Assembly: GCA_017432615.1 (NCBI GenBank) | Contig: JAFRIV010000029.1 | Coordinates: forward strand, 32,918-96,917 | Reading direction: 5' to 3' | DNA length: 64,000 nucleotides | Origin: Oscillospiraceae bacterium | GTDB lineage: Bacteria; Bacillota; Clostridia; Oscillospirales; Oscillospiraceae | Shown here: in pieces, positions 9,175 through 64,000 of the stretch | Layout of the letters: every line of letters starts with the position of its first letter | How positions within the stretch are numbered: the stretch's first letter is position 1 | Made by a program: the position numbers and the translations under genes | Notes under the pieces: model-generated | Database searches by the model: none | Seen by the model: only the letters and a program-made list of their open reading frames with translations | What the model was told of the DNA's origin: nothing

Positions 9175-9251
9175 ATTTACAGTAAGATAGGGGACTGGTA
9201 ATATTATGGAATCAGGGACGGTTTACTGAAACCGTAACCGTACCTGATAGT

Positions 9252-9289: not shown

Positions 9290-9323
9290 TGCAGGTACAG
9301 AGTATCGCTCGGGCATCCGGCGC

Positions 9324-10358: not shown

Positions 10359-10364
10359 TTTCAT

Positions 10365-11816: not shown

Positions 11817-11853
11817 GATGATATGCTCCTTTCTTTTCTCTTGTTCTGGAGCA

Positions 11854-11896
11854 ATCGTAACACCGTAGAATTATTTTGTCAACAATAAAATGTTGA
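11854..11896 (-). promoter_or_regulatory. Epimerase promoter with an overlapping dyad
   Basis: On the minus strand, TTGACA (11877-11882) and TACGAT (11854-11859) are 17 bp apart. A perfect inverted repeat TCAACA-N6-TGTTGA (11879-11896) covers and extends upstream of the -35 box, a usual place for a repressor or activator site. Confidence 0.6.
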
Positions 11897-11956
11897 ATAA
11901 ACTGTAAACTGACGGAAGGCAATGGATGAGCCACAATGCCTCCGTGCAGCAGAAAG

Positions 11957-11988
11957 GGAGCCCGCTTTTGATCGGGAAAGCAGGCTCC
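11957..11988 (-). terminator. Terminator of the HTH gene
   Basis: The stem GGAGCC/GGCTCC continues in GCTTT/AAAGC with one unpaired base on each side, directly after the stop of the minus-strand HTH gene. The minus-strand tail is CTTTCTG, so the T-tract is weak. Confidence 0.5.
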
Positions 11989-12001
11989 GGGTAAAATTGT
12001 T

Positions 12002-12877: not shown

Positions 12878-12907
12878 CTCAAACCTCCATGCCGGGCTCT
12901 TTGAATG

Positions 12908-12936
12908 ATTATATCATAGTTGAAAAAGATTAACAA
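12908..12936 (-). promoter_or_regulatory. HTH gene promoter
   Basis: On the minus strand, TTGTTA (12931-12936) and TATAAT (12908-12913) are 17 bp apart, about 30 bp before the ATG at 12877, which has a GGAGG site. Confidence 0.65.
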
Positions 12937-13048
12937 CATGCACTTTCCCAGACTGCCCTCTTGCTGGTTCTTTTTCGTTTCCTCCTCTATTTATAAATAA
13001 AAATTGTTTTGAGCGGATTTTCCAGTAGATTATTTAAGGCAGATACGG

Positions 13049-13054
13049 TATAAT
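13049..13054 (+). promoter_or_regulatory. -10 box upstream of the DMT transporter
   Basis: A consensus TATAAT lies 33 bp before the ATG at 13087. No good -35 box is present at the usual spacing. It is divergent to the HTH promoter. Confidence 0.45.
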
Positions 13055-13086
13055 ACCATGATATTTTTTGGAGAGGATCCTTACAG

Positions 13087-13962: not shown

Positions 13963-13963
13963 A

Positions 13964-51850: not shown

Positions 51851-51882
51851 AGCACTCTGCGAACTGCAGAGTGCTGTTTTTT
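51851..51882 (+). repeat. Hairpin/T-tract repeat, copy A
   Basis: The stem AGCACTCTGC/GCAGAGTGCT with loop GAACT is followed by GTTTTTTAGCGG. Compared with copies D and E the outermost pair is changed on both sides (G-C to A-T), which is a compensatory change. It lies between the broken dehydratase-like gene and the first sigma factor. The 139 bp before it hold no recognised gene. Confidence 0.85.
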
Positions 51883-51933
51883 AGCGGTAGTTACGAGTGT
51901 CAGCCTTGCATCCCGATGGGATGCGCCGACCTC

Positions 51934-51986
51934 TGAAAAAATTTTTCAAATAATGAAACCGTTCAGCTCAGAACTGGACTATTATA
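51934..51986 (+). promoter_or_regulatory. Putative ECF-type promoter and palindrome, sigma copy 1
   Basis: TGAAAC (51954-51959), 16 bp, then GGACTA (51976-51981) matches the layout of ECF promoters (TGAAAC-N16-CGTA type). A perfect palindrome TGAAAAAATTTTTCA (51934-51948) lies just upstream. The same block with the same spacing stands before the second sigma copy, while the sequence around it is less conserved. Self-activation is likely. Confidence 0.55.
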
Positions 51987-52025
51987 GGCGAATGACCGTG
52001 ATAAAAGAGAATCGAGGTGAGATGC

Positions 52026-52562
52026 TTGACGGATGCAAAAGCATTAACGCAATTACAGTCAGGTGATCAACAGGCGCTGGAATGGTTCATTGATAGATAT
52101 GGCAACTACGTAGGAACTGTCGTAAACAGTGTTCTGCAGAATTGCATGAGTCGTGAAGACGTGGAAGAAGTTGCCGCCGATGTGTTTGTCACCTTCTGGA
52201 AAAGTGCGAAGAATCTTCTACCCATAAATCTAAAAGGGTATTTAAGCCGCGTAGCCAGAAGTCTCGCTTTGCGGAAACTTCGGGAGAAGACTCAGGAACT
52301 GCCTTTAGAGGAAGATGTTCTGTTTATTGAAGAAAACTCTCTGATTGAAAGAATTGATCAGGAGCAACGGGATCAGCGGGTGCGGGAGACAGTACTCTCT
52401 ATGACGCAGCCGGACCGGGAAATCTTTCTTCGTCATTATTACTATTGCCAAAGCATCGCTGTGATAGCAGAAAAGATGAAGATGAATCCGTCCACGATCA
52501 AGACTCGACTTAAACGTGGACGGGAAAAGCTTCGGCAGTATCTTACCGGATATGAATCGTAA
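52026..52562 (+). CDS. ECF-like RNA polymerase sigma factor, copy 1
   Basis: The 178-residue sigma-70 family protein has region 2 (LQSGDQQALEWFIDRYGNYV to DVFVTFWKSAKNLLP) and region 4 (LSMTQPDREIFLRHYYYCQS, AEKMKMNPSTIKTRLKRGRE). It lacks regions 1 and 3, as do ECF factors. TTG 52026 is the best start, 6 bp after AGGTG; the GTG at 52017 lies inside that ribosome site. It is followed 15 bp later by a membrane protein that is probably its anti-sigma. A near-identical pair lies 10,116 bp downstream. Confidence 0.87.
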   Translation: MTDAKALTQLQSGDQQALEWFIDRYGNYVGTVVNSVLQNCMSREDVEEVAADVFVTFWKSAKNLLPINLKGYLSRVARSLALRKLREKTQELPLEEDVLFIEENSLIERIDQEQRDQRVRETVLSMTQPDREIFLRHYYYCQSIAVIAEKMKMNPSTIKTRLKRGREKLRQYLTGYES

Positions 52563-52577
52563 CAGGAGGTAGATGAA

Positions 52578-53198
52578 ATGGAAATCAGGATTCATGAGTT
52601 GTTGAACGGATACGAGGACAGCTCCGTTTCGATGGAAGAAACAAATATTGTCTCCGCAATGAGAATCAAAGAACTGGCAGAAATGAAGATTGAACAGACC
52701 GAAACACTGTACAAACCACTGCATACAGCAAGAAAACGCATTCTTACGCTGGCACTGGCAGCCGCGCTGATGCTGTCCCTTGGTATCGCAGCATATTCTG
52801 CCGGACAGGTTATCTTCGGCTGGGGAGAGAATATGGAAATCCATGCTGAAAAGACAGAGGGGGGCATTCAGACAAACGTCTACGTCCACACGGACAATCT
52901 CACAGAACCTGTGAGCTTTGAGAACGGACGTATGATTTTTATCGTCCATGATGAGCATATTGACATCACAGATCAGGTATCGGAGACACAACCCTATATT
53001 TATCAGTTTTCCGATGAGGAGGGCGTTCTTCACTATTGGATCATCGGGAAAAACGGACCTGAATTGGAGCACTATGGGTATGCGGAATGTCTTCATCCAT
53101 CTGAGAGCGAATGGACAGCCGGATATGTTGCCCGCACAAATGGTAATACTGCTCCCTGGCTTGATAGGGCAAAAGAAGAACTTGGCTTTGATTTTTAG
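52578..53198 (+). CDS. Single-span membrane protein, putative anti-sigma factor, copy 1
   Basis: The 206-residue protein has a charged cytoplasmic N terminus of about 55 residues (MEIRIHELLNGYEDSSVSME), one span (LTLALAAALMLSLGIAAYSA), then an extracellular domain of about 125 residues (EPVSFENGRMIFIVHDEHID to WLDRAKEELGFDF). The layout and the place after an ECF gene point to an anti-sigma that senses an outside signal. No zinc-binding anti-sigma motif is present. AGGAGG precedes the ATG by 9 bp. The family is similar in layout to DUF4179 proteins, but I cannot confirm it. Confidence 0.75.
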   Translation: MEIRIHELLNGYEDSSVSMEETNIVSAMRIKELAEMKIEQTETLYKPLHTARKRILTLALAAALMLSLGIAAYSAGQVIFGWGENMEIHAEKTEGGIQTNVYVHTDNLTEPVSFENGRMIFIVHDEHIDITDQVSETQPYIYQFSDEEGVLHYWIIGKNGPELEHYGYAECLHPSESEWTAGYVARTNGNTAPWLDRAKEELGFDF

Positions 53199-53259
53199 AC
53201 CGTTTCTGTATCGCCGCTGAAGCATCAATACAGAATCTGCCGGTTTCATTTTGCCGCAA

Positions 53260-53293
53260 TGCAACTTATCGCCTCAAAATGCATCTTACCGCC
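53260..53293 (+). promoter_or_regulatory. Direct repeat, candidate LytTR operator
   Basis: TGCAACTTATCGCC (53260-53273) and TGCATCTTACCGCC (53280-53293) agree in 12 of 14 positions at a 20-bp period. They end 7 bp before the -35 box. LytTR-type regulators generally bind pairs of direct repeats about 21 bp apart, and a LytTR gene lies in the operon. Confidence 0.55.
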
Positions 53294-53300
53294 CAAAGCC

Positions 53301-53328
53301 TTGAAAAAAACAGGAAACACGCTAAAAT
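53301..53328 (+). promoter_or_regulatory. Promoter of the hydrolase-LytTR-DUF3021 operon
   Basis: TTGAAA (53301-53306) and TAAAAT (53323-53328) are 16 bp apart, with the ATG 33 bp downstream. Confidence 0.6.
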
Positions 53329-53361
53329 GGCCCTGCAATCTGAAAAGGACAGGTGATCATA

Positions 53362-54726
53362 ATGGGTTTGGTGTTGTTCGTGCTTCTCTCTGCACTGGAA
53401 ATTATTTTGGCAGTTAAAGGACGCGGCAAGGAAAAAGAAAAGAAAGTCTGGCTGAAAAACCGGCTTCTCGTCCGCACAGCGGAAGCTGCAATCGTACTGA
53501 TTGCACTGCTGCTTCCCTATGGGCAGAAATGGCGTCTCGTTCCGCTGCTGGGCTTTCTGGCGTTGCTGGAGATCATAGCACTGCTGAAATGGCTGGGCGG
53601 CCGCAGGTCAGATAACGCTGAAAAGAAGACAGGATTTGCTGCTTCCAACTGTGTGTTCAGCATCCTTTTCATCGGCCTTCTGTTGATCCCGGCTGTTATA
53701 TTCACCGGCTACAAAGGTCTGCCTGTCTCAGGACCTCACCCTGTCGCAGAGACCTCCGTAATCGTGATTGACAGTTCCCGTACCGATCCCTTTGAGCAGG
53801 ACGGCAGCTTCCGCGAGGTGCCGGTGCATTTCTATTATCCTGCCGACGCAGAAGAGCGCGAGCGGTTCCCGCTGGTTGTGTTTTCCCACGGCGCCTTTGG
53901 TTATTACGAGAGCAATACCTCCACTTATAGGGAACTTGTCAGCAGCGGCTATGTGGTGGCTGCGCTGGATCACCCGCACCACGCCTTCTTTACACAGGAT
54001 ACTGCGGGGAAGACGATATTTGTTGATCAGGGCTTTTTTCAAACGGCGGTTTCACTCAACAACAACGCCTACGATGATCCGGAGAAATGCTACCCGATCT
54101 ACCGAGAGTGGATGGATCTGCGCACGTCAGATATGAACTGTATGCTGGACACGGTGAAAGCTGCCGGAGTATCCGGTAAGCTGAACGACGCATTATTTCT
54201 GCCGGAGAACAACCCCGACACGATTCTCTCCGTCCTGAAGATGATCGACATGACGAAGATCGGCCTGATGGGGCACTCCATGGGTGGCGCTACCTCGGTA
54301 CAGGTGGGAAGGGAGCGCAATGACATCTCCGCCGTCATCGACCTGGACGGAACAATGCTGGGAGAACTTCTTGGTGTGGAAAACGGAAACTACGTTGTCA
54401 ACAAAGAGCCTTATACGATTCCTTTGCTTGAATTTGCAAATTGGGAACAGTATAATGACCGCAAGGAATACCTTTTATTGGGTTATGCCTATCCCAATGA
54501 GGTACTGCTTTCGTGTGGCAAGGAGTGCTTTTACGTCACAGTCCGCGACACACTGCATATGGATTTTACCGATCTGCCCCTTCTGTCTCCAACCCTGGGG
54601 AACATACTCGGCAGCGGAGAGCGGGCCAATGCGGAAACGATGACTATCGTGAATGGCCTCGTGCGGGATTTCTTCAATTACACTTTGAAAGACGAAGACA
54701 CGTTTTCAGCGCAAGGAATCTACTGA
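53362..54726 (+). CDS. Membrane-anchored alpha/beta hydrolase (PAF-acetylhydrolase-like)
   Basis: The 454-residue protein has three N-terminal membrane segments (VLFVLLSALEIILAV, AAIVLIALLLP, CVFSILFIGLLLIPAVIFTG). An exposed alpha/beta-hydrolase domain follows. VVFSHGAFGYYE supplies the oxyanion region, S306 lies in GHSMGG, the acid is D327 or D329 in VIDLDG, and H399 lies in DTLHMDF. The order resembles PAF-acetylhydrolase II or dienelactone-hydrolase relatives. A lipid or ester substrate at the outer face is inferred. ATG 53362 is chosen for AGGTGA 6 bp upstream. It is the first gene of an operon with a LytTR regulator. Confidence 0.85.
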   Translation: MGLVLFVLLSALEIILAVKGRGKEKEKKVWLKNRLLVRTAEAAIVLIALLLPYGQKWRLVPLLGFLALLEIIALLKWLGGRRSDNAEKKTGFAASNCVFSILFIGLLLIPAVIFTGYKGLPVSGPHPVAETSVIVIDSSRTDPFEQDGSFREVPVHFYYPADAEERERFPLVVFSHGAFGYYESNTSTYRELVSSGYVVAALDHPHHAFFTQDTAGKTIFVDQGFFQTAVSLNNNAYDDPEKCYPIYREWMDLRTSDMNCMLDTVKAAGVSGKLNDALFLPENNPDTILSVLKMIDMTKIGLMGHSMGGATSVQVGRERNDISAVIDLDGTMLGELLGVENGNYVVNKEPYTIPLLEFANWEQYNDRKEYLLLGYAYPNEVLLSCGKECFYVTVRDTLHMDFTDLPLLSPTLGNILGSGERANAETMTIVNGLVRDFFNYTLKDEDTFSAQGIY

Positions 54727-54750
54727 GCTGTCGACGTGCCGGGAGACACT

Positions 54751-55194
54751 ATGGATGTTAAGATCAGGCAAATCGGTGAGGGAGAACAGGAACAGGTTCT
54801 GATCTGCTGCCGAGAGGTCACCGAAGAGGTACAGGAAATTGCCGCATTCATCCGATCCAGGCAGGGAAGCCTGTCTGGTGTACAGGACGAGAAACAGTAT
54901 GAGATCCCCATCTCCGAACTGTACTATATAGAGTCTGTGGACGGCAAGACCTTTCTCTATACAAAAGCGCAGGTTTATGAGACTTCATACCGGATCTACG
55001 AGTTGGAAAGCCTGCTCCGGCCAAAGCACTTTTTGCGCGTTTCCAAGTCCATGCTGCTGAACCTGATGAAGATCCGCTCTATCCGACCTGCTTTGAACGG
55101 ACGGCTTGTCGCCGTCCTGCAGTCAGGCGAGGAAGCAATCATTTCCCGTAGCTATGTCAAGGACCTGAAGTCCGCTTTGAAAGGAGAGGCATGA
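54751..55194 (+). CDS. LytTR-family DNA-binding regulator
   Basis: The roughly 147-residue cytoplasmic protein has a C-terminal LytTR domain at about 50-145: IPISELYYIESVDGKTFLYT, FLRVSKSMLLNLMKIRSIRP, ISRSYVKDLK. No receiver domain is present, so it belongs to the small LytTR regulators controlled by a partner membrane protein. ATG 54751 is preferred over GTG 54736, because GGGAG lies 5 bp before it. The DUF3021 gene follows after one base. Confidence 0.9.
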   Translation: MDVKIRQIGEGEQEQVLICCREVTEEVQEIAAFIRSRQGSLSGVQDEKQYEIPISELYYIESVDGKTFLYTKAQVYETSYRIYELESLLRPKHFLRVSKSMLLNLMKIRSIRPALNGRLVAVLQSGEEAIISRSYVKDLKSALKGEA

Positions 55195-55195
55195 G

Positions 55196-55672
55196 ATGAC
55201 CCTCAGGCAGTTTCTAATCCGTAAGCTGATGCTGTTTTTTACGCTTTCAACACTCATCACCATCGCTATTTACATTTTGGGCACAAGTTTCGATCCCGCT
55301 GCCCGCTTTGGGTACGATGGGTTTCTTTCTCCGCTTATTTATGCCGGCGTATGCGTGGTTCCCAGTCTGGTTACCTGGTCGAAACGGGAACTGAAACTCA
55401 GGGAATTGCTTCTGCGCGAGTTGCTGCAGTTTCTGCTGACTGAGACCATCGTACTGGGCCTGGCGTTCCGGAGCAGCGTGATCGATACATCTCGCCCCGC
55501 TGTGGTGATAGGAATCGCCGGGAGCGTGCTGGTGATCTATCTGCTTGCCTTTCTGATCTCATGGGCAACAAATTCCGCCGAAGCACGGGAAACCGACCGG
55601 GAACTGCAGAAATTCCAGCGCCTCCACGGCGTTGATCTGTGCGTATCGAACGAAACCGCTCAAGAGAATTGA
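55196..55672 (+). CDS. DUF3021 four-span membrane protein
   Basis: The 158-residue protein has four hydrophobic segments (LMLFFTLSTLITIAIYILG, FLSPLIYAGVCVVPSLVTW, FLLTETIVLGLAF, VVIGIAGSVLVIYLLAFLIS). A charged C-terminal tail ends in DLCVSNETAQEN. LytTR-DUF3021 pairs are common in Bacillota. The membrane protein probably holds the regulator inactive, as described for LytTR regulatory systems in streptococci. Repeat copy B follows its stop. Confidence 0.87.
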   Translation: MTLRQFLIRKLMLFFTLSTLITIAIYILGTSFDPAARFGYDGFLSPLIYAGVCVVPSLVTWSKRELKLRELLLRELLQFLLTETIVLGLAFRSSVIDTSRPAVVIGIAGSVLVIYLLAFLISWATNSAEARETDRELQKFQRLHGVDLCVSNETAQEN

Positions 55673-55718
55673 TGGAGCGTAAAAATGGTATAGAGAAGTT
55701 TACCCTCAAAAAAACGCA

Positions 55719-55750
55719 AGGCACTCTGTGAACTTCAGAGTACCTTTTTT
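55719..55750 (+). repeat. Hairpin/T-tract repeat, copy B
   Basis: The stem GGCACTCTG/CAGAGTACC has one C-A mismatch and is followed by TTTTTTGTGG. It lies 47 bp after the DUF3021 stop and serves as its terminator. It lies 44 bp beyond the end of the minus-strand ATP-grasp gene. Confidence 0.8.
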
Positions 55751-55793
55751 GTGGTGAAAATACTGCTAAAGAAATTCTGTCTGGCGATTGCCG

Positions 55794-56975
55794 TCAGCCC
55801 TGAACAAACCGGATGAATGCCAGGGTCTCATCAAAGGTCTTCAGGCGTACGGTATACATATACCGTCCCATTGTCGCCCAGCTGATCTCCGGCATCTCTT
55901 CCTGCATCATCATGACTGTACCGTAGCGATCCATAATCTCCTCGTGCGTATGGGTATAATGGTTCCCGTCCTTTCGGCTGGCATAGGCACAGTAGTACTG
56001 ATCCTCCGATACCGGCAGCCGCCGCTCATCAAAGCACACCATATCGGCGTAGATTTTGTAAACGTCTGTGGAATGGGCGAAGTTCATCATATCCGGTGTG
56101 TAGCCTCCGGGTGGGCGCATATTGACTTCCAGAGCCACAAAGTCTCCTCTGTCACCCAGCCCTTTGTGTTCTTTTGTCAGACGGAAGAACTCCAGATGGA
56201 CGAAGCGCCGGTCCACACCGAAAGCCTTGACCGTTCTGCGTCCAAGAGTTCTCAGCCCTTCTGCCACATCCGGGCAGGTATAGTAGTTCAGATCCAGATT
56301 TTCGTTGACAACGTCCATTACCGGAGGGAATACGTTCATGTTCTCAAACAGCGGTTCGCAGTTGGAATCAAAAATCCCGTCATAGGAGACGACGTCTCCC
56401 TGAATGAACTCCTCCATTACATAAGAAACAGGGGGCAAATCGGCATAGAAAGCGTCGAAATCGGCGTCATTTTCCAGCTTCCAGGTATCGTGCGCGCCAA
56501 CACCGATATTCGGCTTGACAATTACAGGATAGCCCACAAGGCTGATAAATTCGAGTCCGGCTTCCCGGGTCGAAACGAAGTGCTGTCGTGCGGTCGGAAT
56601 ACCGGCTTCGATATACAACTGCTTCATCAGGGCCTTTTCTTTGATGAAGCTGATTCGGTCGGCCCGGATACCGGTGGTCACGTTAAAGTCCGTACGCAGG
56701 CGGGCGTCCTGCTCCAGCCAGTATTCGTTCAGCGACTCGATCCAGTCGATCTTTCCGTATTTGAATGCAAAAAAACCGACGGCACGGTAGACCTGGTCGT
56801 AGTCCTCAAGGCTGCCTACCTTGTAATACTCGGTCAGACAGCCCTTCAGCTCCGGCTCCAGACCGTCATATGCTGCGTCACCAATGCCCAGCACATTGAC
56901 ACCGTTTTGGCGCAGCCGGTCACAGAACTGCCAGTAGGTGCGGGGGAAGTTCGGAGAGATAAAAACGAAATTCAC
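55794..56975 (-). CDS. ATP-grasp ligase-like protein
   Basis: The 393-residue cytoplasmic protein begins NFVFISPNFPRTYWQFCDRL, a pre-ATP-grasp domain. The ATP-grasp core has ISFIKEKALMKQLYIEAGIP, GYPVIVKPNIGVGAHDT, YVMEEFIQGDVVSYDGIF and the metal-binding end FVALEVNMRPPGGYT. Such enzymes join a carboxylate to an amine or thiol through an acyl phosphate. The substrates are unknown. GTG 56975 is used; the frame upstream lies in the preceding gene. It is separated by 16 bp from the esterase gene and shares its promoter. Confidence 0.83.
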   Translation of the reverse strand: MNFVFISPNFPRTYWQFCDRLRQNGVNVLGIGDAAYDGLEPELKGCLTEYYKVGSLEDYDQVYRAVGFFAFKYGKIDWIESLNEYWLEQDARLRTDFNVTTGIRADRISFIKEKALMKQLYIEAGIPTARQHFVSTREAGLEFISLVGYPVIVKPNIGVGAHDTWKLENDADFDAFYADLPPVSYVMEEFIQGDVVSYDGIFDSNCEPLFENMNVFPPVMDVVNENLDLNYYTCPDVAEGLRTLGRRTVKAFGVDRRFVHLEFFRLTKEHKGLGDRGDFVALEVNMRPPGGYTPDMMNFAHSTDVYKIYADMVCFDERRLPVSEDQYYCAYASRKDGNHYTHTHEEIMDRYGTVMMMQEEMPEISWATMGRYMYTVRLKTFDETLAFIRFVQG

Positions 56976-56991
56976 GAATTCACATCCCTTC

Positions 56992-57732
56992 TTATTGATC
57001 GCCCAGCATATAGGGCAGGAAATAACGCATCTGCTTATACCACCAGGGCCAGTCATGGTTCACATCATAGCCCCAGAAATCGCACCAGGCGTGGATCCCC
57101 TTCTCGCGGAAGACGCTTTCAAGATATTTGAGAGTCCTCAGGCTGTCCTCCTCCCATGCACCCTGACCGCAGCACAGGATGATCCTGCGTTCATTGTACA
57201 GACGGATGTACGGATGGTCTGCAGGCATCTGCGGGAGAAAACGTTCCGGAGAGCTTTCATAAAGCGTTCCGTTCATCCAGCCGTCAAAAAAATAATCCGA
57301 ATCGTACACGCCGGAGAGCCCGATCACACCGCAAAACAGATCCGGGCGGCGGAGGAAGGTGATCAGTGCATGGTTTGCACCCATGCTGAAGCCGGTGACG
57401 GCGGGAACCTGATCGTTGCGGCTGCGCATGAAGGGAATGACTTCATCGGTAATATAGTGAAAATACTGCTCCTGACGGGCGGCGCGCCATTCCTTGTCGC
57501 CCTCTTTCAGCGACCAGCTCTCTGCATCCACGCTGTCCACCGCAAACAACTGAATCCTTCCTTCCTCAATAAAATCGGCCAGCTGGTCGATCATACCGAA
57601 ATCTTCATAGTTGTTTGCCATGGAATTCTGCGTGGGAAAGCACAGCAGCGGCATTCCGCTGTGCCCGTAGATCATGAGGCGCATGTCCTTGTCCAGAATC
57701 CAACTGTAATGACCATACTCTTCTCTGTACAT
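56992..57732 (-). CDS. Putative esterase (esterase D/Fes-like alpha/beta hydrolase)
   Basis: The 246-residue cytoplasmic protein has nucleophile S116 in VTGFSMGANHAL and a likely catalytic H226 in YDVNHDWPWWYKQ. GMPLLCFPTQNSMANNYEDF in the N-terminal part lies near the oxyanion site. It belongs to the putative-esterase family, whose members cut esters or transfer acyl groups. It is the first gene of a two-gene unit with an ATP-grasp enzyme, so the pair may add and remove the same group. Confidence 0.83.
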   Translation of the reverse strand: MYREEYGHYSWILDKDMRLMIYGHSGMPLLCFPTQNSMANNYEDFGMIDQLADFIEEGRIQLFAVDSVDAESWSLKEGDKEWRAARQEQYFHYITDEVIPFMRSRNDQVPAVTGFSMGANHALITFLRRPDLFCGVIGLSGVYDSDYFFDGWMNGTLYESSPERFLPQMPADHPYIRLYNERRIILCCGQGAWEEDSLRTLKYLESVFREKGIHAWCDFWGYDVNHDWPWWYKQMRYFLPYMLGDQ

Positions 57733-57768
57733 ACTTTATCCTCTTTCTTCTGTCCAAAATACTATTAA

Positions 57769-57797
57769 ATCATATAACGTATCGTTATTTTTGTCAA
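57769..57797 (-). promoter_or_regulatory. Esterase/ATP-grasp promoter with a palindrome in the spacer
   Basis: On the minus strand, TTGACA (57792-57797) and TATGAT (57769-57774) are 17 bp apart. A perfect palindrome ATAACG-TAT-CGTTAT (57774-57788) fills the spacer, which is typical of a repressor operator. The half-site TATCGTTATTT recurs at 57899-57909, before the YccF promoter. Confidence 0.65.
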
Positions 57798-57879
57798 CTG
57801 TGAGTGTTTTACAAGTCTTCCAAAATCGGAGGGTGGAAGATGCCCCCTTCGTCTCCATAATCCGCAAAGCATTCAGTAC

Positions 57880-57942
57880 CCTGCAGAGCATCGATATTTA
57901 TCGTTATTTAAGGTGGAAAAATCCGCTGTGCTGATGTATAAT
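57880..57942 (+). promoter_or_regulatory. YccF promoter within a decayed hairpin repeat
   Basis: TGGAAA (57914-57919) and TATAAT (57937-57942) are 17 bp apart. Together with the bases between (TGGAAAAATCCG ... TGTATAAT) this is nearly the same as the block after repeat copy E at 63368-63396. CCTGCAGAGC at about 57880-57889 may be the remains of the hairpin repeat's right arm. Confidence 0.55.
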
Positions 57943-58030
57943 AAATATGTTTTTCCTGATATTCTTTCCCTGATCTGACAGCCTGATGCAGCAGTATTAT
58001 GGGTTTTACACAAAAAGGAGAATTGAAACG

Positions 58031-58405
58031 ATGAGAATTATCGGTAATATTATCTGGATCGTTTTCGGCGGCTTACTGAGTTACCTGGCATGGGTGTTGG
58101 CAGGCATTCTGTGGTGCGTTACAATCATAGGAATTCCTGTAGGCCTGCAGTGCTTCAAGCTCGCAAGCATCTCACTGAATCCCTTTGGGAAAGAGATTGT
58201 TTATGAGGGAGAAGCAGTATCCTTTCTGCTGAATGTGGTATGGTTCCTGGCAAGCGGATGGGTCCTCGCACTGGCCAATTATCTGCTTGGCATCCTGTTT
58301 TGCATCACAATTATTGGGATTCCCTTCGGAAAGCAGTATTTTAAGATTGCAGGTCTTTCTCTTCGCCCGTTTGGTGCTTCTGTCGTAAGAGAACATTATC
58401 TGTAA
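58031..58405 (+). CDS. YccF-family (DUF307) inner-membrane protein
   Basis: The 124-residue protein consists of two similar halves, each with a span and the motif CxTIIGIPxGxQxFKxAxxSLxPFG (CVTIIGIPVGLQCFKLASIS and CITIIGIPFGKQYFKIAGLS). This is the YccF double repeat. The function of the family is unknown. ATG 58031 follows AAGGAG by about 10 bp. It has its own promoter near 57914. Confidence 0.9.
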   Translation: MRIIGNIIWIVFGGLLSYLAWVLAGILWCVTIIGIPVGLQCFKLASISLNPFGKEIVYEGEAVSFLLNVVWFLASGWVLALANYLLGILFCITIIGIPFGKQYFKIAGLSLRPFGASVVREHYL

Positions 58406-58438
58406 AGAAGCAGATTTCATCAACTCTAGCAACCTTGG

Positions 58439-58454
58439 GATAAGGATCCTTATC
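58439..58454. repeat. 16-bp palindrome after yccF
   Basis: GATAAGGATCCTTATC is a perfect palindrome 33 bp after the YccF stop and is followed by GGTTTTG. It is a weak terminator or a protein-binding site. Confidence 0.45.
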
Positions 58455-58533
58455 GGTTTTGTCATCCTTTCTTATGATGAGTGCGTCTTTGTTTTTGACT
58501 GATTGATTACTGAAGATTTGTGGAGGAGTCAGT

Positions 58534-58989
58534 ATGGAGTTGTTTGAAGATAGAATTGAGGCATTTTTTACGGACTTCGGAAAAAGTAAAAAAATGGTGC
58601 TCTCAACTTCTGAAAATGACAGAGTTTCATCACGAATGATGAGCATTGTACAGATCGATGGCGAATTTTATTTTCAAACAGATAAAAAGATGAAAAAATA
58701 TCGACAGCTCCTGGCTAACCGTCATGTTGCTCTGTGTATAGATAACATACAAATTGAAGGATTTTGCGAAGAAATTGGACATCCGTTGGAAAACCTCGCT
58801 TTTTGCAGTGCGTTTCAGGAATGCTTCAAGGGTTCCTATGATGCGTACTCTTCATTGAAAAATGAAAGACTTTTTGTTGTAAGGCCATTTTATATAGAAC
58901 GCTGGATATATAAAAATGGGTTGCCCTTTATTGAAACTTTTTGCTTCAGGAACAGGCAATATGGCTTTGAACAGTATACAGGCGTATGA
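58534..58989 (+). CDS. Pyridoxamine 5'-phosphate oxidase-family protein
   Basis: The 151-residue split-barrel flavoprotein has KMVLSTSENDRVSSRMMSIV, GEFYFQTDKKMKKYRQLLAN and RHVALCIDNIQIEG, the pattern of the small PNPOx-like family. It probably binds FMN or F420-like cofactors; the substrate is unknown. It is more AT-rich than its neighbours. A GGAGGAG site precedes the ATG. Confidence 0.85.
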   Translation: MELFEDRIEAFFTDFGKSKKMVLSTSENDRVSSRMMSIVQIDGEFYFQTDKKMKKYRQLLANRHVALCIDNIQIEGFCEEIGHPLENLAFCSAFQECFKGSYDAYSSLKNERLFVVRPFYIERWIYKNGLPFIETFCFRNRQYGFEQYTGV

Positions 58990-59027
58990 TTTTTTACGTT
59001 TATCAGACCGTTAGAAACAGAAGATGA

Positions 59028-59153
59028 GGCGTCACGCTCAAAACTTACGCGCGTCTGAGACCGGTAGATACCAACAAAGTGCCTTACCGCATAGAGCAGG
59101 AAACGCTCGCGAGCAAGATGAAGGACTTGGAGGATCTGCTCTTAACTGTATAA
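59028..59153 (+). pseudogene. C-terminal remnant of a tyrosine integrase
   Basis: After an in-frame TGA the frame reads GVTLKTYARLRPVDTN and ends at TAA 59151-59153, about 41 codons. GVTLKTY matches GVTLNTY at the catalytic tyrosine of the second integrase remnant. The DNA (GGCGTCACGCTCAAnACTTAC) is almost identical in both. Everything upstream of the tyrosine motif is gone. Repeat copy C follows after 15 bp. Confidence 0.55.
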
Positions 59154-59168
59154 CTCCAAAAATCGAAA

Positions 59169-59199
59169 GACACTCCGCGAACAGCAGAGTGCCTTTTTT
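59169..59199 (+). repeat. Hairpin/T-tract repeat, copy C
   Basis: GACACTCCGC/GCAGAGTGCC around GAACA is followed by TTTTTTATAAGG. Two stem positions are mismatched against the other copies. It lies 15 bp after the integrase remnant stop. Confidence 0.75.
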
Positions 59200-59267
59200 A
59201 TAAGGAGACGCCCTATCCCGGAAAGATGCGGACATCCTCGCAGATACCATATTATTTTCTTACGGAC

Positions 59268-61322
59268 TTACCAGATTGCAACTCTGTCTTCGGGAGCAAG
59301 ATACATATTGTCGCCTTCGGTGATGCCATAGAAATTCAGGAACTCGTCGTACTGCTGCAGATTTGTATTAATGTGCAGATAGTTCATGGGGTGCTCGTCT
59401 TCCAGACGCGCCATAGCCATCATGAGAGTCTCTTTTGTGGCATAGCGATCGGCGTAAGCACGGAAAAATTTATCATAATCGAAATCCGGCTTCTCAGCAG
59501 CAATACGAAGCATGCATTTTAAGGCTGCCATATCCGCACAGGCTTCTCCAATCATAGCCTCGCCGTTAAAGTCCTGTCCTTCCCATGGACGCATCGCGTT
59601 AAAATAGGCGGCGAGCTTTTCATTTTTCTCGTTGAAAGCGGCATAGTCGTCCTCTGTCCACCAGTTAATGGAATTCCCGTCTTTGTCATACGTCGCGCCA
59701 AATGCATCGAATGCATGGGAGATCTCATGCGCTATGGCAGTACCGGTATATGCATAGAGTTCTTCATCCGTCATGTCCGGCCTGTAGTTGGGATTTTGTG
59801 CAAACGCGGCATTGATATATATCCCGTTGACAGACGGCGTATAGGTGCAGTTGCCTATGAATGGAAGCGAATCCCAAATCGTCCTGTCAAAGGGCTTGGA
59901 TACCTCCGCAACTGCTTTGTCATGCTCGTGCTTTTTTATTGCTCGCCAGGCTTCCCACAGATTGCCGCCTTCTTCTTTTGCGGTAAAGTTCACGTCTTCA
60001 AGACTGTAAGCCTCCCAGTTGTCCGGGTACAAAACGTTTCTGGTCATGCTGTCCAGCTTGGCAATGGCACCGGCACGGGTCTCATCAGAGATAAAGTTGG
60101 CATCCTCAATAATACCGTAATAGGCATTGACGATTTCTTCAACCAATTCTGATAGGCGTGCTTTGTCGGCAGGATTCGCATATCTGTCCACATAAAGCTT
60201 TGAGACTGGCCAAGCAACAACACTGTTCACTTCATCATAGACAAGAGACGAGAGATATTCTTCCTTGTCCACTTCGTAGTGCATACCGCTCGCAATCATT
60301 TCCTGATAGTCGCTGACAAGGACATAGCTTTCCCAATCCAGGGCTTCCGCCTTCTCAAAAATGCTGTGCAAAATAAGATAATCCCGCAGAAGGGGCAGAT
60401 TTTCTTCTGTATAAAGCTCATTCAGCTTTCCAAGAACTGCCGGCGCCGGAATTAGATATCGGTCCATTGCGGGATATCCGTCGGCCTTCTCCAATGTTTC
60501 CAGGATCGGGATATTCGGGGTAATCGCCAGCAGTTCACTGCGGGTGTAATATGTATCGCTACCGGCATTATCCCCCTTACCCGCAAGGACAGTATTCAGC
60601 AGCGTCTCCCATGCGAAACAGTTATCGAATTTCTGCTTCGCATCCTCTTCACTGTATCCGAGCTTTTCCAGCATTTTCCTGAAAAAGGCTTCATAGGTTT
60701 CCTTTTGGGTTTTCCCGTAGTCCGTCATCTCACAGTATTCCGTGTGATCCAGGATTAAACTGTATCCGTTTTTTATTGAGAGGACATTAGTGCCCGGATT
60801 TTCCGTATCCTGCACGCTGCTCTCTTTCCAAAGACAGTAGAGCCGGTCTTCTCCCGGTGTTTTGACAAAGTACTCTGTCAGAGCATCAAGACTTGTGATC
60901 TCTTCCACCACGTCGATCATTTCCTTTAATGGAGCGACACCAAGGGCATCCCGGGAGTCCCAGTCACAAAGAAGATAGAAGTAGTCATAGGCAAGCCTGG
61001 CGTCGTGATCTTCCGGTACTTCTCCGTGGAACAGGGCCATCATATCCTTGGTACTTTTGATATTCACATCGATAGTGTTTCCGGCCGCAAGATATCCCTC
61101 CGGGATCTCCAGGCTAAGGATTCTGTCTTTATTAGCCCAGAGCGCAAAGTTATCCTTCAAATCGGTGGGCGTATCCGCGGTGACATTTCCTTCCAGATCG
61201 ATGTCCAGCCATGGTGTTCCGGTGGTATAGTCGATCGCCTCAATGGGGCTCTCCGCAATAGCCGAAGCTGCCAGAGACAAGCACAACGCTGCCGTCAGAA
61301 TGATGCTGATTGTTTTTTTCAT
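59268..61322 (-). CDS. Secreted M13-family (PepO/neprilysin-like) metallopeptidase
   Basis: The 684-residue protein has a signal peptide (KKTISIILTAALCLSLAASA). The M13 peptidase has the zinc motif H532-E-I-S-H536 in AIAHEISHAFDAFG, the third ligand in GEACADMAALKC and the NSINWWTEDDYAAF segment. The N-terminal M13 domain is complete and the C terminus ends in VAIW, as usual. It cleaves peptides outside the membrane. It lies on the minus strand between two plus-strand integrase remnants, each followed by a hairpin repeat. GAGAGG lies 8 bp before the ATG. Confidence 0.92.
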   Translation of the reverse strand: MKKTISIILTAALCLSLAASAIAESPIEAIDYTTGTPWLDIDLEGNVTADTPTDLKDNFALWANKDRILSLEIPEGYLAAGNTIDVNIKSTKDMMALFHGEVPEDHDARLAYDYFYLLCDWDSRDALGVAPLKEMIDVVEEITSLDALTEYFVKTPGEDRLYCLWKESSVQDTENPGTNVLSIKNGYSLILDHTEYCEMTDYGKTQKETYEAFFRKMLEKLGYSEEDAKQKFDNCFAWETLLNTVLAGKGDNAGSDTYYTRSELLAITPNIPILETLEKADGYPAMDRYLIPAPAVLGKLNELYTEENLPLLRDYLILHSIFEKAEALDWESYVLVSDYQEMIASGMHYEVDKEEYLSSLVYDEVNSVVAWPVSKLYVDRYANPADKARLSELVEEIVNAYYGIIEDANFISDETRAGAIAKLDSMTRNVLYPDNWEAYSLEDVNFTAKEEGGNLWEAWRAIKKHEHDKAVAEVSKPFDRTIWDSLPFIGNCTYTPSVNGIYINAAFAQNPNYRPDMTDEELYAYTGTAIAHEISHAFDAFGATYDKDGNSINWWTEDDYAAFNEKNEKLAAYFNAMRPWEGQDFNGEAMIGEACADMAALKCMLRIAAEKPDFDYDKFFRAYADRYATKETLMMAMARLEDEHPMNYLHINTNLQQYDEFLNFYGITEGDNMYLAPEDRVAIW

Positions 61323-61372
61323 TTGCCCATCCTCTCATTTATTGTATGAATATATACAGAAGTCTATATATA

Positions 61373-61942
61373 GGGGGTCATATCGACTTTGAGCATCACC
61401 TGATCAATATTGATCACCAGCTCCAACGGAGCGCGGATATGACGCTTGTGATTCAGGAGACCAAGACCCACGCCGGAACCCGCAAGCTCCCGATGACGGC
61501 CGACGTCGAGCAATGCTTCCGCGCCATCATCGAGGACCGGCCGACCCCCAGGATCGAGCGCATGGTCGACGGGCGCAGCGGTTTTCTGTTTCTGGACAAG
61601 GACTGCCTGCCGGAAGTGGCCATGCACTGGGAGCACCGGTTCAACCATATGGTCAAGCGCTACAACGATATCTACCGGGTCCAAATGCCCAACATCACTC
61701 CGCACGTTTGCCGCCATACTTACTGCAGCAATCAGGCCAAGGCGGGCATGAATCCGAAAACGCTGCAGTACCTAATGGGTCACAGCGACATCGGCGTCAC
61801 GCTCAATACTTACACCCACTTGGGGCTGGAAGACGCCGCTGAGGAACTCCGCCGCATGGAGGAAGCCGAGGCCGCCCGCAGGGAGCAGGAAAAGCTCGCG
61901 GGCAAGGCGAAGGATGCTCAGAAACTTTTCAACGCGGTCTGA
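61373..61942 (+). pseudogene. Truncated tyrosine integrase (Tn916-type catalytic domain)
   Basis: The frame encodes only the C-terminal 190 residues of a Tn916-like integrase, starting at GGHIDFEHHLINI. The catalytic HxxR (ITPHVCRHTYCSNQA), the second histidine (LMGHSDIG) and the tyrosine (TLNTYTHL) remain. The first catalytic arginine, the core-binding domain and the arm-binding domain are missing. Its codon use is more GC-rich than the neighbours, suggesting a foreign origin. It cannot be active alone. Repeat copy D follows 21 bp after its stop. Confidence 0.85.
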
Positions 61943-61963
61943 AAACAGCGACAAAACCAGCAA

Positions 61964-61997
61964 GGCACTCTGCGAGCTGCAGAGTGCCGTTTTTTTT
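61964..61997 (+). repeat. Hairpin/T-tract repeat, copy D
   Basis: A perfect 10-bp stem GGCACTCTGC/GCAGAGTGCC with loop GAGCT is followed by GTTTTTTTTAGTGG. It lies between the integrase remnant and the second sigma copy. Confidence 0.9.
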
Positions 61998-62049
61998 AGT
62001 GGCTACTATGTGTGTCATACTTGTATGCCACGCGTGTGACGGTGTCCTC

Positions 62050-62102
62050 TGAAAAAAGTTTTCAAATAATGAAACCATTCAGCCTAAAATTGGACTATTA
62101 TA
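62050..62102 (+). promoter_or_regulatory. Putative ECF-type promoter and palindrome, sigma copy 2
   Basis: TGAAAC (62070-62075), 16 bp, GGACTA (62092-62097) and the palindrome TGAAAAAAGTTTTCA (62050-62064) repeat the arrangement upstream of sigma copy 1 with the same spacing. Confidence 0.55.
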
Positions 62103-62141
62103 AGTGAACGGCCGTGATAGAAGAGAATCGAGGTGAGATGC

Positions 62142-62678
62142 TTGACGGATGCCAAAGCATTAACGCAGCTACAGTCAGGAGATCAACAGGCGCTGGGATG
62201 GTTCATTGATAGATATGGCAACTACGTAGGAACTATCGTAAAGAGCATTCTGCAGGACTGCATGGGTCGTGAGGACGTGGAAGAAGTTACCGCCGATGTG
62301 TTTGTCACCTTCTGGAAAAGCGCGGAGGGTCTTCTTCCCTTAAATCTCAAAGGGTATTTAAGCCGCGTGGCACGAAGCCTCGCGCTGCGGAAGCTTCGTG
62401 AGAAGACGCAGGAACTGCCTCTGGAGGAAGATGTTCTGTTTGTTGAAGAAAACTCTCTGATTGAAAGAATTGATCAGGAGCAACGGGATCGGCGGGTACG
62501 GGAAGCAGTGCTTTCGATGACGCAACCGGACCAGGAAATCTTTCTCCGTCATTATTACTATTGTCAAAGCGTCGCTGTGATTGCTGAAAAGATGAAAATG
62601 AATCCATCCACAATCAAAACCCGACTCAAGCGTGGACGGGAAAAGCTTCGTCAGTATCTTACCGGATTGGAACCGTGA
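62142..62678 (+). CDS. ECF-like RNA polymerase sigma factor, copy 2
   Basis: The 178-residue protein is a near copy of the sigma factor at 52026. Differences are scattered, mostly conservative and without indels (for example ALGWF for ALEWF, GTIVKSILQDCMG for GTVVNSVLQNCMS). Regions 2 and 4 are intact, so both copies look functional. The start is TTG 62142 after AGGTG. It overlaps no other gene and is followed 15 bp later by its membrane partner. Confidence 0.87.
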   Translation: MTDAKALTQLQSGDQQALGWFIDRYGNYVGTIVKSILQDCMGREDVEEVTADVFVTFWKSAEGLLPLNLKGYLSRVARSLALRKLREKTQELPLEEDVLFVEENSLIERIDQEQRDRRVREAVLSMTQPDQEIFLRHYYYCQSVAVIAEKMKMNPSTIKTRLKRGREKLRQYLTGLEP

Positions 62679-62693
62679 GAGGAGGCGGCTGAA

Positions 62694-63314
62694 ATGGAAA
62701 TCAGGATTCATGAATTGCTGAACGGATACGAGGACAGTTCCGTTCCGATGGAAGAAACGGATGTCGTCTCCGCGATGAGAATCAAGGAGCTGACAGAAAT
62801 GAAGATTGAACAGACCGAAACACAGTATAAACCGCGGCATACAGTAAGAAAACGCATCCTTACGCTGGCTCTGGCGGCTGCGCTGATGCTATCCCTCGGA
62901 ATCGTAGCATATTCTGCAGGACAGGCAATCTTTGGCTGGGGCGGAAATATGGAGATCCGTTCCGAGAAGACAGCGGGCGGCATCGAAAATACCGTCTACG
63001 TGCACACGGACGATCTCACAGAGCCTGTAAGCGTTGAGAATGGACGCATGTACTTTATTGTCAACGACGAGCATATTGACATCACGGATCAGGTATCGGA
63101 GACGGAACCCTATATTTATCAGTTTACTGATGAAGAGAATGTTCTGCACTATTGGATCATCGGGAAAAACGGACCTGAATTGGAGCACTATGGTTTTGCG
63201 GAATACCTTCATCCATCTGAGAGCGAATGGACTGCCGGATATGTTGCCCGCACAAATGGCAATACTGCTCCCTGGCTGGATAAAGCCAAAGAAGAACTTG
63301 GCTTTGATTTTTAA
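62694..63314 (+). CDS. Single-span membrane protein, putative anti-sigma factor, copy 2
   Basis: The 206-residue protein is a near copy of the membrane protein at 52578, with the same layout: cytoplasmic N terminus, one span (LTLALAAALMLSLGIVAYSA), extracellular domain. The most variable part is just outside the membrane (GNMEIRSEKTAGGIENTVYV against ENMEIHAEKTEGGIQTNVYV), while the last 50 residues are almost unchanged. This could mean changed sensing or pairing. Confidence 0.75.
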   Translation: MEIRIHELLNGYEDSSVPMEETDVVSAMRIKELTEMKIEQTETQYKPRHTVRKRILTLALAAALMLSLGIVAYSAGQAIFGWGGNMEIRSEKTAGGIENTVYVHTDDLTEPVSVENGRMYFIVNDEHIDITDQVSETEPYIYQFTDEENVLHYWIIGKNGPELEHYGFAEYLHPSESEWTAGYVARTNGNTAPWLDKAKEELGFDF

Positions 63315-63331
63315 CAGCAATCAATCACCAA

Positions 63332-63363
63332 GGCACTCTGCACGCTGCAGAGTGCCGTCTTTT
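63332..63363 (+). repeat. Hairpin/T-tract repeat, copy E
   Basis: A perfect 10-bp stem GGCACTCTGC/GCAGAGTGCC with loop ACGCT is followed by GTCTTTTATAGTGG, 18 bp after the stop of the second membrane protein. With copy D it brackets the second sigma module as a direct repeat. Confidence 0.9.
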
Positions 63364-63367
63364 ATAG

Positions 63368-63396
63368 TGGAAAAATCCGTGGTGGAGGTGTATAAT
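63368..63396 (+). promoter_or_regulatory. Promoter after repeat copy E
   Basis: TGGAAA (63368-63373) and TATAAT (63391-63396) are 17 bp apart, and the block is shared with the YccF promoter. It would transcribe the lipoprotein gene with a leader of about 100 nt that contains a small GTCTGG/CCAGAC hairpin (63425-63440). Confidence 0.6.
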
Positions 63397-63504
63397 CTAT
63401 TGGCATGACGGGACCTCCCGGTAAGTCTGGATCTCCAGACAGTACAACATGATTCGGCACACCCTGTGGCCGGAAGAGATCTGATAAAGGGTTATATATT
63501 ATTT

Positions 63505-64000
63505 ATGAAAAGAGTTTTACTAAAACCATGGAAGAGAACAGCTGTGCTTCTTATTATCCTTCTTGCGGTCCTCTTGATGGCCGCCTGTGGAAAGGCTGAG
63601 ACGGCTGTGCCGGTTTCTACGGAAGTCCTTGTTGACGGAACGGAAGCCGGGCCTAAGTCCGCAGCAGCGTCTGCGGAGGAGATTCATCCGTTTGAGAACA
63701 CCTCCCCGCAAGGCGAACAGGAAGTAACGCATGCAGCAAATCCCGCCGAAGCAGGTGATCCGTTTACCCTTTCGGAAACGCAGCAGTATGCGGCCAATCT
63801 CTCTCTGAGCAATTTCTCCGAGCAATGGTTCTGTGAGATTGGGACTTTCGATCACTACGATTCCGCTGATACGAGCATCGCGCAGTTGTTCTCCTTCGCT
63901 CATCTTTGGAGCAAGATCAACCGGCCGACGGAGATGGAGTACAGAGACGGGTATGAGACCATGACCCGCGAGACGTTCTTTGAGATCATCGGCCCTCGGA
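63505..64000 (+). CDS. Lipoprotein, 3' end outside the window
   Basis: The frame stays open to the window edge (165 codons seen). It begins with a lipoprotein signal (MKRVLLKPWKRTAVLLIILL ... LLMAACG), whose lipobox cysteine is at about residue 28. A low-complexity stretch rich in E, A, P and T follows, then the start of a folded domain (NLSLSNFSEQWFCEI). It is anchored outside the membrane. No family is recognised. The ribosome site is weak (AAAGG 14 bp upstream). Confidence 0.7.
   Translation, partial: MKRVLLKPWKRTAVLLIILLAVLLMAACGKAETAVPVSTEVLVDGTEAGPKSAAASAEEIHPFENTSPQGEQEVTHAANPAEAGDPFTLSETQQYAANLSLSNFSEQWFCEIGTFDHYDSADTSIAQLFSFAHLWSKINRPTEMEYRDGYETMTRETFFEIIGPR

What the first reader, a model, noticed from the sequence alone, without database searches (positions are those of the whole stretch)
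51851..63363. Five same-direction hairpin repeats cut a 12-kb accessory region into gene cassettes
Seen: the element GGCACTCTGC-N5-GCAGAGTGCC plus T-tract plus (A/T)GTGG occurs at 51851, 55719, 59169, 61964 and 63332, always on the plus strand. Copy A has a compensatory outer-pair change, so the hairpin itself is conserved. I noticed no copy in the first 50 kb. Between copies lie unrelated units: sigma module 1 plus hydrolase-LytTR-DUF3021; esterase/ATP-grasp plus yccF plus PNPOx; M13 peptidase plus integrase remnant; sigma module 2. Inference: this may be a cassette array in which the hairpin is a recombination site, analogous to but unlike integron attC sites, or a terminator carried by related mobile units. 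A plain shared terminator family is the conservative reading.
Basis: partly seen in the sequence, partly recalled or inferred. Interest (0 to 1): 0.75.

Follow-up and report, generated by a model that had tools for sequence, protein, structure and literature searches.

The report
Interchangeable cargo genes at prophage ends
The five hairpins are the stop signals of a repeated spacer that separates swappable cargo genes next to the integrase end of a family of rumen-bacterial prophages, and in this genome the row of cargo genes seems to have outlived the prophage that brought it.

Summary
The five same-strand hairpins are real (0 expected in shuffles); a decayed sixth lies at 57868. The hairpin is only the left half of a ~160-nt boundary: terminator, T-tract, ATAGTGGAAAAATCC, promoter, leader up to the RBS. 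A covariance model finds it in 47 of 102 genomes of the genus, often as same-strand arrays. The same cargo recurs beside it in different species and contexts; 108 of 359 homology ends fall at boundaries versus 9.0 expected. So a plain terminator family is too little and the cassette reading is right. But nothing shows an attC-like site: no integron integrase passes its cut-off (0 of 102). Where intact, the adjacent tyrosine integrase belongs to a siphophage-type prophage, in G059 with the boundary directly behind it. In 26 of 30 loci one shared right-end sequence with arm-like repeats follows the last boundary, in 11 with a tyrosine-phosphatase gene (probable attB) behind. Best reading: arrays of moron-type phage cargo in one expression frame, exchanged mainly by homologous recombination; the window holds a decayed end. 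Inferred: exchange mechanism, present mobility.

The parts
51851..51883 (+). boundary copy 1: terminator hairpin and T-tract; outer pair A-T (compensatory); followed by the sigma-cassette 5' region instead of the common promoter
   Evidence: (model positions 18-51)
52017..53198 (+). cassette: sigma-70-like gene (52017-52562) and partner gene (52578-53198), copy 1; 87% identical over 1349 bp to copy 2
   Evidence: Pfam sigma-70 for copy 2; partner of copy 2 without Pfam match, partner of copy 1 without PHROG match
53353..55672 (+). cassette: PAF-AH-type hydrolase, LytTR regulator, DUF3021-like protein; the same trio ends at a boundary in G034, G053 and G108
55703..55797 (+). boundary copy 2 (hairpin 55720-55744); left half intact, promoter half replaced
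55794..57732 (-). ATP-grasp-like (55794-57056) and esterase (56992-57732) genes, opposite direction; probably inserted, not a cassette (inference)
58031..58405 (+). YccF-domain membrane protein gene
58534..58989 (+). PNPOx-type gene; a relative sits between two boundaries in G105
59028..59150 (+). short remnant of the 3' end of a phage integrase gene (matches to 59125, end at about 59150 by eye), directly before the hairpin at 59169
   Evidence: families D3, D8
59169..59202 (+). boundary copy 4: hairpin and T-tract only
   Evidence: (E 0.027)
59268..61322 (-). M13-family peptidase gene, opposite direction, between two integrase remnants
61370..61942 (+). 3' part of a tyrosine integrase gene (residues 238-425 of a 425-residue relative, 96% identical); gene ends 21 bp before the hairpin
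61947..62043 (+). boundary copy 5 (hairpin 61964-61988, T-tract, TAGTGG), then sigma-cassette 5' region
62133..63314 (+). cassette: sigma-70-like gene (62133-62678) and partner gene (62694-63314), copy 2; the boundary-to-boundary unit is 95% identical over 1445 bp in G036
63315..63425 (+). boundary copy 6, the only full one in the window: hairpin 63332-63356, T-tract, promoter TGGAAA-17-TATAAT at 63368-63396
63496..64000 (+). start of the next cargo gene (lipoprotein-like by eye, family fam13), cut by the contig end; relatives in G034, G132, G013

Best explanation
The region is the decayed right end of an integrated phage carrying a row of moron-type cargo cassettes. Each complete cassette is a transcription unit: promoter, ~60-nt leader with RBS, one to three host-type genes, terminator. 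The terminator of one unit and the promoter and leader of the next form a standard ~160-nt boundary, so the genes are interchangeable inserts in a fixed expression frame, all read the same way. In a prophage with an intact integrase the first boundary follows the integrase stop codon, and arrays run into a shared right-end sequence with arm-like repeats and, often, the LMW protein-tyrosine-phosphatase gene (probable attB). The hairpin most likely began as the integrase gene's own terminator. Cassettes accumulate through repeated integration at the same site and are gained, lost and swapped mainly by homologous recombination (RecA or the phage's exonuclease plus annealing protein) between boundaries of incoming and resident prophages; they stay after the phage genes decay. 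Shown by sequence: boundary structure, cassette reuse, break-points at boundaries, right-end sequence, prophage context in relatives, integrase remnants in the window. Inferred: promoter and terminator activity, exchange mechanism, order of events.
For: Boundary structure: alignments of 29 copies and of 19 chosen copies with different downstream genes, conserved from hairpin to RBS (end judged by eye); promoter and terminator-like motifs in the window. Distribution: 47 of 102 genomes of the genus at E<=0.01 (12 of 34 of the better genomes), many clustered; in the order only 9 weak hits, 44 bits or less, among the 393 sampled genomes other than the window's own (stricter filters in both). Cassette reuse: hydrolase-LytTR-DUF3021 before a boundary in 4 loci, hexapeptide transferase behind one in 4, GNAT in 4; window and G036 sigma unit 95% identical over 1445 bp, boundary to boundary. 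Break-points: 108 of 359 ends of 94 inter-genome alignments at boundaries, permutations 9.0 +/- 5.0, maximum 32 of 2000. Orientation: 42 of 42 sites in 15 multi-site loci agree within each locus. Right end: the shared right-end sequence follows the last boundary in 26 of 30 loci (one of them, G105, by a 27-bp match only), and an LMW-PTP gene lies 0.3-1.5 kb behind the last boundary in 11 of 30. Prophage: in G059 an intact 426-aa integrase is followed by a boundary, with terminase, portal, head protease, tape measure, Dit, holin and endolysin upstream and an exonuclease plus Gp2.5-like annealing protein in the same contig. Origin of hairpin: 12 of 24 printed IMG/VR relatives have a GC hairpin and T-run just behind the integrase stop (by eye; 4 of the 24 end within 10 nt).
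Against: Of eight window proteins (46.5-62.7 kb) scanned against PHROGs only the integrase remnant is clearly phage-type (the sigma gene also matches phage sigma families); the first 46 kb were not searched for phage genes. The right-end sequence was not found in the last 18 kb of the window, whose contig ends 0.6 kb after the last boundary. Only one intact integrase with a boundary directly behind it was found (G059); in G020 a second element lies between. Arrays in G105 and G132 start behind a chromosomal-looking gene (BioY-like by eye) with no integrase directly before the first boundary. Minus-strand units in the window do not fit the cassette format. Exchange points estimated for 19 sites scatter, and 5 of the 19 gained nothing from a switch. 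No boundary was found in the 30 of 33 IMG/VR integrase relatives that were searched, in IMG/VR by an exact pattern, or in phage and plasmid records with one copy as query.
Confidence: 0.64

Rival explanations
1. Site-specific cassette system: a tyrosine recombinase (the neighbouring phage integrase or another) acts at the junction core TTTTTT-ATAGTGG-AAAAAT, so that circular cassettes carrying one junction are inserted and removed, like integron cassettes.
For: The junction is a T-tract, a 7-bp asymmetric centre and an A-tract; the published Tn916 insertion consensus is TTTTTA[AT][AT][AT][AT]AAAAA (PMC12084037, passages). Left-atypical sites fuse at TTATA|GTGG in G101 (twice), G059 and G000 C14, at ATATC|GTGG in G034, and right-atypical ones just after TTTTTTATA or TTTTTTATAGTGG in several. 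Pairwise identity switches between model positions 41 and 57, and the mean exchange cost is lowest at TTTTTTAT|AGTGG. Constant orientation fits.
Against: That best point lies within one mismatch of the site's own optimum for only 5 of 19 sites; three sites fuse inside the hairpin's 3' arm; the core doubles as terminator tail and -35 box, which could explain its conservation; no boundary was found in the searched phage relatives of the integrase; the integrase's probable natural core lies in the phosphatase gene beyond the arms. Excised circles could not be sought.
Confidence: 0.17
2. Tandem accretion only: successive prophages entered the same attB, each left an integrase tail, terminator and some genes, and the repeats are shared right-end sequence with no cassette exchange.
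For: Two integrase remnants in the window. The right-end sequence also lies between boundaries in 7 loci (L020, L028, L120, L121, L124, L125, and weakly L139), including one place inside the G105 array. Phosphatase-gene starts without a phosphatase gene follow four arrays.
Against: Three of the four units between the five G105 boundaries (GNAT, EamA transporter, sigma pair) have no right-end copy; one cassette appears beside different neighbours in different species.
Confidence: 0.14
3. Ordinary shared terminator, or terminator plus promoter, family without gene mobility.
Against: Clustering in arrays, near-restriction to one genus, conservation of promoter and leader across unrelated genes, and homology break-points at boundaries.
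Confidence: 0.04
4. A true integron array of an unrecognised class.
For: Same-orientation cassettes with a structured site at the 3' end of each gene, next to a tyrosine recombinase gene in some loci.
Against: Integron integrase model TIGR02249: 0 of 102 genomes over cut-off, while 100 of 102 have sub-cut-off matches, as have all 14 control genomes; the neighbouring integrase matches phage integrase families; complete cassettes carry their own promoter.
Confidence: 0.01

Closest known systems
Phage morons and lysogenic-conversion genes
   Same: ORF flanked by its own promoter and terminator, present in one genome and absent from a relative (definition read in passages of PMC3029335); host-type cargo; position behind the integrase near the attachment end.
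   Different: The passages seen describe single inserted segments; here several stand in a row and share one boundary sequence across species.
Streptococcal paratox-toxin exchange at prophage right ends
   Same: A conserved sequence at the attR end proposed as the place where cargo is exchanged by homologous recombination (PMC6224593, passages).
   Different: There the conserved piece is a gene next to one toxin; here it is a noncoding terminator-promoter-leader repeated between many genes.
Cluster K mycobacteriophage start-associated sequences (SAS/ESAS)
   Same: Repeats, mostly in one orientation, just upstream of start codons of different gene families (PMC3203893, passages).
   Different: SAS is 13 bp at the RBS position; ours is ~160 nt with terminator and promoter and lies between cargo genes at the integrase end.
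Conserved boundary sequences of mosaic phages
   Same: Short conserved sequences at module borders proposed as sites of homologous recombination (PMC3029335, passages).
   Different: Here one boundary is repeated in tandem arrays that appear to persist without the phage.
Integrons
   Same: Works alike in outline: same-direction gene cassettes, a structured repeat after each gene, sometimes a tyrosine recombinase gene beside the array.
   Different: No integron integrase over cut-off; promoter in each complete cassette; array lies between phage integrase and its arm-like sites; no evidence for attC-type recombination.

Membership tests
Phage moron | ORF with its own promoter and terminator | tested here: met
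   Sequence motifs in aligned copies and window scan; activity not measured; some window units lack the common promoter
Phage moron | Lies within a phage or prophage genome | tested here: inconclusive
   Met in G059; in the window only integrase remnants
Phage moron | Present or absent between related genomes at that place | tested here: inconclusive
   G105/G132 and G006/G040 share a flank and differ in cargo; no clean single-unit difference found
Phage moron | Expressed from the lysogen independently of phage genes | not testable with these tools
   No RNA data
Integron | Integron integrase (IntI) gene | tested here: not met
   TIGR02249: 0 of 102 genomes over the curated cut-off
Integron | Array of cassettes in one orientation | tested here: met
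   42 sites in 15 multi-site loci
Integron | attC sites with R and L boxes recombined as single-strand hairpins | not tested
   No attC model was run; one junction carries an unrelated hairpin
Tn916-type integrase target | T-tract, about 6 bp, A-tract core | tested here: inconclusive
   Core TTTTTT-ATAGTGG-AAAAAT resembles the consensus in PMC12084037, spacer differs; use by the integrase not shown
Known RNA family | Rfam match | tested here: not met
   No match at gathering threshold in window, L120, L020, L124

The most novel reading that the evidence does not exclude
A phage-borne cassette system outside integrons: the prophage integrase, or a recombinase supplied in trans, recombines the core TTTTTT-ATAGTGG-AAAAAT, so that ready-to-express gene cassettes (promoter, gene, terminator) are collected one by one between the integrase gene and its arm sites and shared among species of a rumen genus.
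Probability: 0.17. Interest if true: 0.88.

Novelty: new variant of a known kind. Interest (0 to 1): 0.6.

Why it matters
How morons get in and out of phages is an open question (my reading of the field, recalled). Here one noncoding boundary of about 160 nt repeats between many unrelated cargo genes, at prophage ends, in 47 of 102 genomes of one genus. That gives a fixed-frame cassette array whose junctions can be traced across species, and makes the route of moron exchange (homologous or site-specific recombination at the boundary) directly testable. It also suggests how cargo can outlive the phage. In nine searches of an open-licence library no title or abstract shown describes such arrays; the listings were capped and most listed papers were not read.

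Tried and rejected
Evenly spread terminator family: rejected by clustering and near-restriction to the genus. Integron: rejected. Known RNA element: none (4 sources). Element on phages or plasmids of public records: no match with one copy as query; IMG/VR exact-pattern scan empty. Chance hit G000 C16:49318 was set aside: it has no T-tract and is not in the hit list.

Covariation: one search gives 7 cells with a two-sided change, all at one pair (A-U to G-C, with a U-A to U-G change nearby); the number of pairs changed on both sides is no better than shuffles (451 of 500 reach it), so this support is thin.

Exchange-point analysis was meant to separate site-specific from homologous recombination and did not: 19 informative sites, optima scattered, mean minimum at TTTTTTAT|AGTGG, 5 of 19 without gain from a switch. 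Hairpin-type by promoter-type table: partly linked, with recombinant combinations; my type rules left many sites as 'other'.

Rows dropped: one search removed 4 of 68 matches (three duplicates of the same place, one opposite-strand palindrome echo) before the pair counts. For the site lists I left out opposite-strand echoes of the palindrome and, outside the window, matches weaker than E 0.0005. The 30 loci were chosen because they hold boundaries and do not cover all 47 genomes; L029 was fetched but held no model hit and was left out.

Full report
1. Pattern search finds the five hairpins, all on the plus strand, none in the first 50 kb, with 0 expected in shuffles. Corrections: the second starts at 55720; GTGG follows only three of five; a sixth, decayed boundary lies at 57851-57971 with its promoter half intact. 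In the window's own genome (2.4 Mb MAG, 50 contigs) the pattern with up to 3 mismatches hits only two other places, one of which has no T-tract. The extended model finds nine: five in the window, two on contig C4 and one each on C14 and C23.

2. The hairpin is half of a longer boundary. Sites in other genomes showed the constant sequence AAAACCAGCAA, hairpin, GTTTTTTATAGTGGAAAAATCCGTGGTGATGGTGTATAATAAACTACTTAATTTTGCGGG. Twenty-nine copies were aligned and made into a covariance model. Nineteen copies chosen for different downstream genes stay alike through the leader to the RBS, and similarity fades at the start codon (by eye). The promoter reads TGGAAA-17-TATAAT; window copies at 57914 and 63368 are among the 21 promoter-like sites of a consensus scan, in which shuffles give 14.9. 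Pair counts support the hairpin only at one covarying pair.

3. Distribution. The model hits 47 of 102 genomes of the genus at E<=0.01, 12 of 34 among the better genomes, with stricter filters that lose weak matches. In the order, 10 of 394 sampled genomes hit including the window's own; the other nine score 44 bits or less. Of 20 stretches with the core in named records, 15 are titled Oscillospiraceae or Ruminococcaceae, with sheep, goat, roe deer or yak gut named where a source is shown for these; five bear other titles (two Lachnospiraceae, one each Bacteroidetes, Clostridiales, Eubacteriales). Phage and plasmid records searched with one copy, and an IMG/VR exact-pattern scan, were empty.

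4. Cassettes. Thirty loci with boundaries were cut into reading frames and compared. In 15 loci with two or more sites, all 42 sites share the orientation of their locus. G105 has five boundaries in 4.5 kb (one of them the hairpin half only) separating a GNAT acetyltransferase, a PNPOx protein, an EamA transporter and a sigma plus partner pair; the PNPOx unit also holds a copy of the right-end sequence. The hydrolase-LytTR-DUF3021 trio of the window precedes a boundary in G034, G053 and G108; the sigma pair of the window is 95% identical from boundary to boundary in G036 (1445 bp); a hexapeptide transferase follows boundaries in four different upstream contexts. Of 359 ends of 94 inter-genome alignments (at least 400 bp and 70% identity), 108 fall at boundaries, against 9.0 +/- 5.0 in 2000 permutations, maximum 32. 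Many of these alignments share events, so the number is not a count of independent exchanges.

5. Where the arrays sit. Several boundaries directly follow the 3' end of one tyrosine integrase gene, and pieces of that end remain before other boundaries (by eye). The integrase is intact in G020 and G059, and open to the contig end in G050. In G059 the boundary follows its stop codon, and upstream lie terminase, portal, head protease, tape measure, Dit, holin and endolysin genes; the contig also encodes an exonuclease and a Gp2.5-like annealing protein. Downstream, a shared right-end sequence with repeats of the type GGTAGTAA...TTTACTACC, which resemble arm sites of the Tn916 integrase (recalled), follows the last boundary in 26 of 30 loci (G105 by a 27-bp match only); the four without are L021, L125, L137 and the window, of which L125 and the window end within 0.7 kb. 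A low-molecular-weight protein tyrosine phosphatase gene lies 0.3-1.5 kb behind the last boundary in 11 of 30 loci. Related integrases elsewhere in the genus sit directly before the same gene without a boundary between (by eye). In IMG/VR relatives, 12 of 24 printed integrase ends are followed by a GC hairpin and T-run, twice with a similar GGCGCTCTGC or GACGCTCTGC stem start (by eye), so the hairpin is most simply the integrase terminator, copied to other cargo.

6. How it works. The boundary gives each cargo gene a promoter, leader, RBS and terminator, which is what defines a phage moron (PMC3029335, passages). A shared boundary of ~160 nt should be ample for RecA or a phage annealing system (general knowledge), and exchange at a conserved place near attR is proposed for streptococcal toxin cargo (PMC6224593, passages). 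Right-end copies inside seven arrays (one weak) show that successive integrations at one site contributed. I therefore favour repeated integration plus homologous recombination between incoming and resident prophages, followed by decay of the phage genes. In the window the integrase survives as two remnants (59028-59150 and 61370-61942), and the ATP-grasp/esterase and M13 genes, on the other strand, look like later insertions.

7. What speaks for a site-specific mechanism. The junction TTTTTT-ATAGTGG-AAAAAT is T-tract, short centre, A-tract, like the Tn916 consensus TTTTTA[AT]4AAAAA (PMC12084037, passages). Sites with an atypical left or right half often fuse around this core, and identity profiles switch there (80 pairs sharing only the upstream side, 70 sharing only the downstream side, 1860 sharing neither). 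Against it, single-site exchange points scatter, three sites fuse inside the hairpin, and the searched phage relatives of the integrase have no boundary. I give it 0.17.

8. Not found. No clean gain or loss of exactly one segment between close strains: the genome set holds one genome per species; G105/G132 share 8.6 kb at 95% and then differ, with a boundary in one and right-end sequence in the other behind the GNAT gene; G006/G040 share the DNA before the boundary and differ behind it.

9. Literature. Nine searches of the open-licence library showed no title or abstract describing such arrays. Passages of five papers were read: PMC12084037, PMC3029335, PMC7067206, PMC6224593, PMC3203893; the rest were seen as listings only.

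Noticed in passing
window 51930-53200 and 62046-63314: Two copies, 87-90% identical, of a sigma-70-like gene with a partner gene lacking a Pfam match (copy 2) or PHROG match (copy 1); the partner looks like an anti-sigma factor by eye.
   Followed up: partly
L033, L034, L035, L036, L037, L042, behind the integrase stop codon: Relatives of the integrase (59-66% identical over the part compared) sit before the phosphatase gene (L036 before its start only), and their arm-like repeats differ between species (GGTAGTAAA, GGTAAA, GCAGTAAA, GGTGTAAA), possibly co-varying with the integrase (by eye).
   Followed up: no
L022 and L124 (phosphatase gene behind the array): The phosphatase proteins of G052 and G131 carry a C-terminal extension that looks like barstar by eye; not tested.
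   Followed up: no
L129 about 7640-16370 (oriented): In G020 a large-serine-recombinase element appears to have inserted right behind the integrase stop codon, separating it from the array (recombinase by eye).
   Followed up: no
L025 about 5071-9039: In G040 about 4 kb is inserted into a gene that is whole in G006 (L023), just upstream of the shared boundary.
   Followed up: no
L021, L024, L123: Three boundaries have an alternative right half (TTTTTT then CTGGATCA...) followed by the same two genes, the first resembling a truncated serine recombinase by eye.
   Followed up: partly
L196 end and L125: In G059 and G013 the first cargo behind the integrase looks like a PerR/Fur-type regulator, followed in G013 by rubredoxin/rubrerythrin-like genes (by eye), i.e. 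possible oxygen-stress cargo.
   Followed up: no
L028, L121, L128, L134 behind the array: A phosphatase-gene start motif without a phosphatase gene detected behind it, as expected for an attachment core left by a further integration.
   Followed up: no
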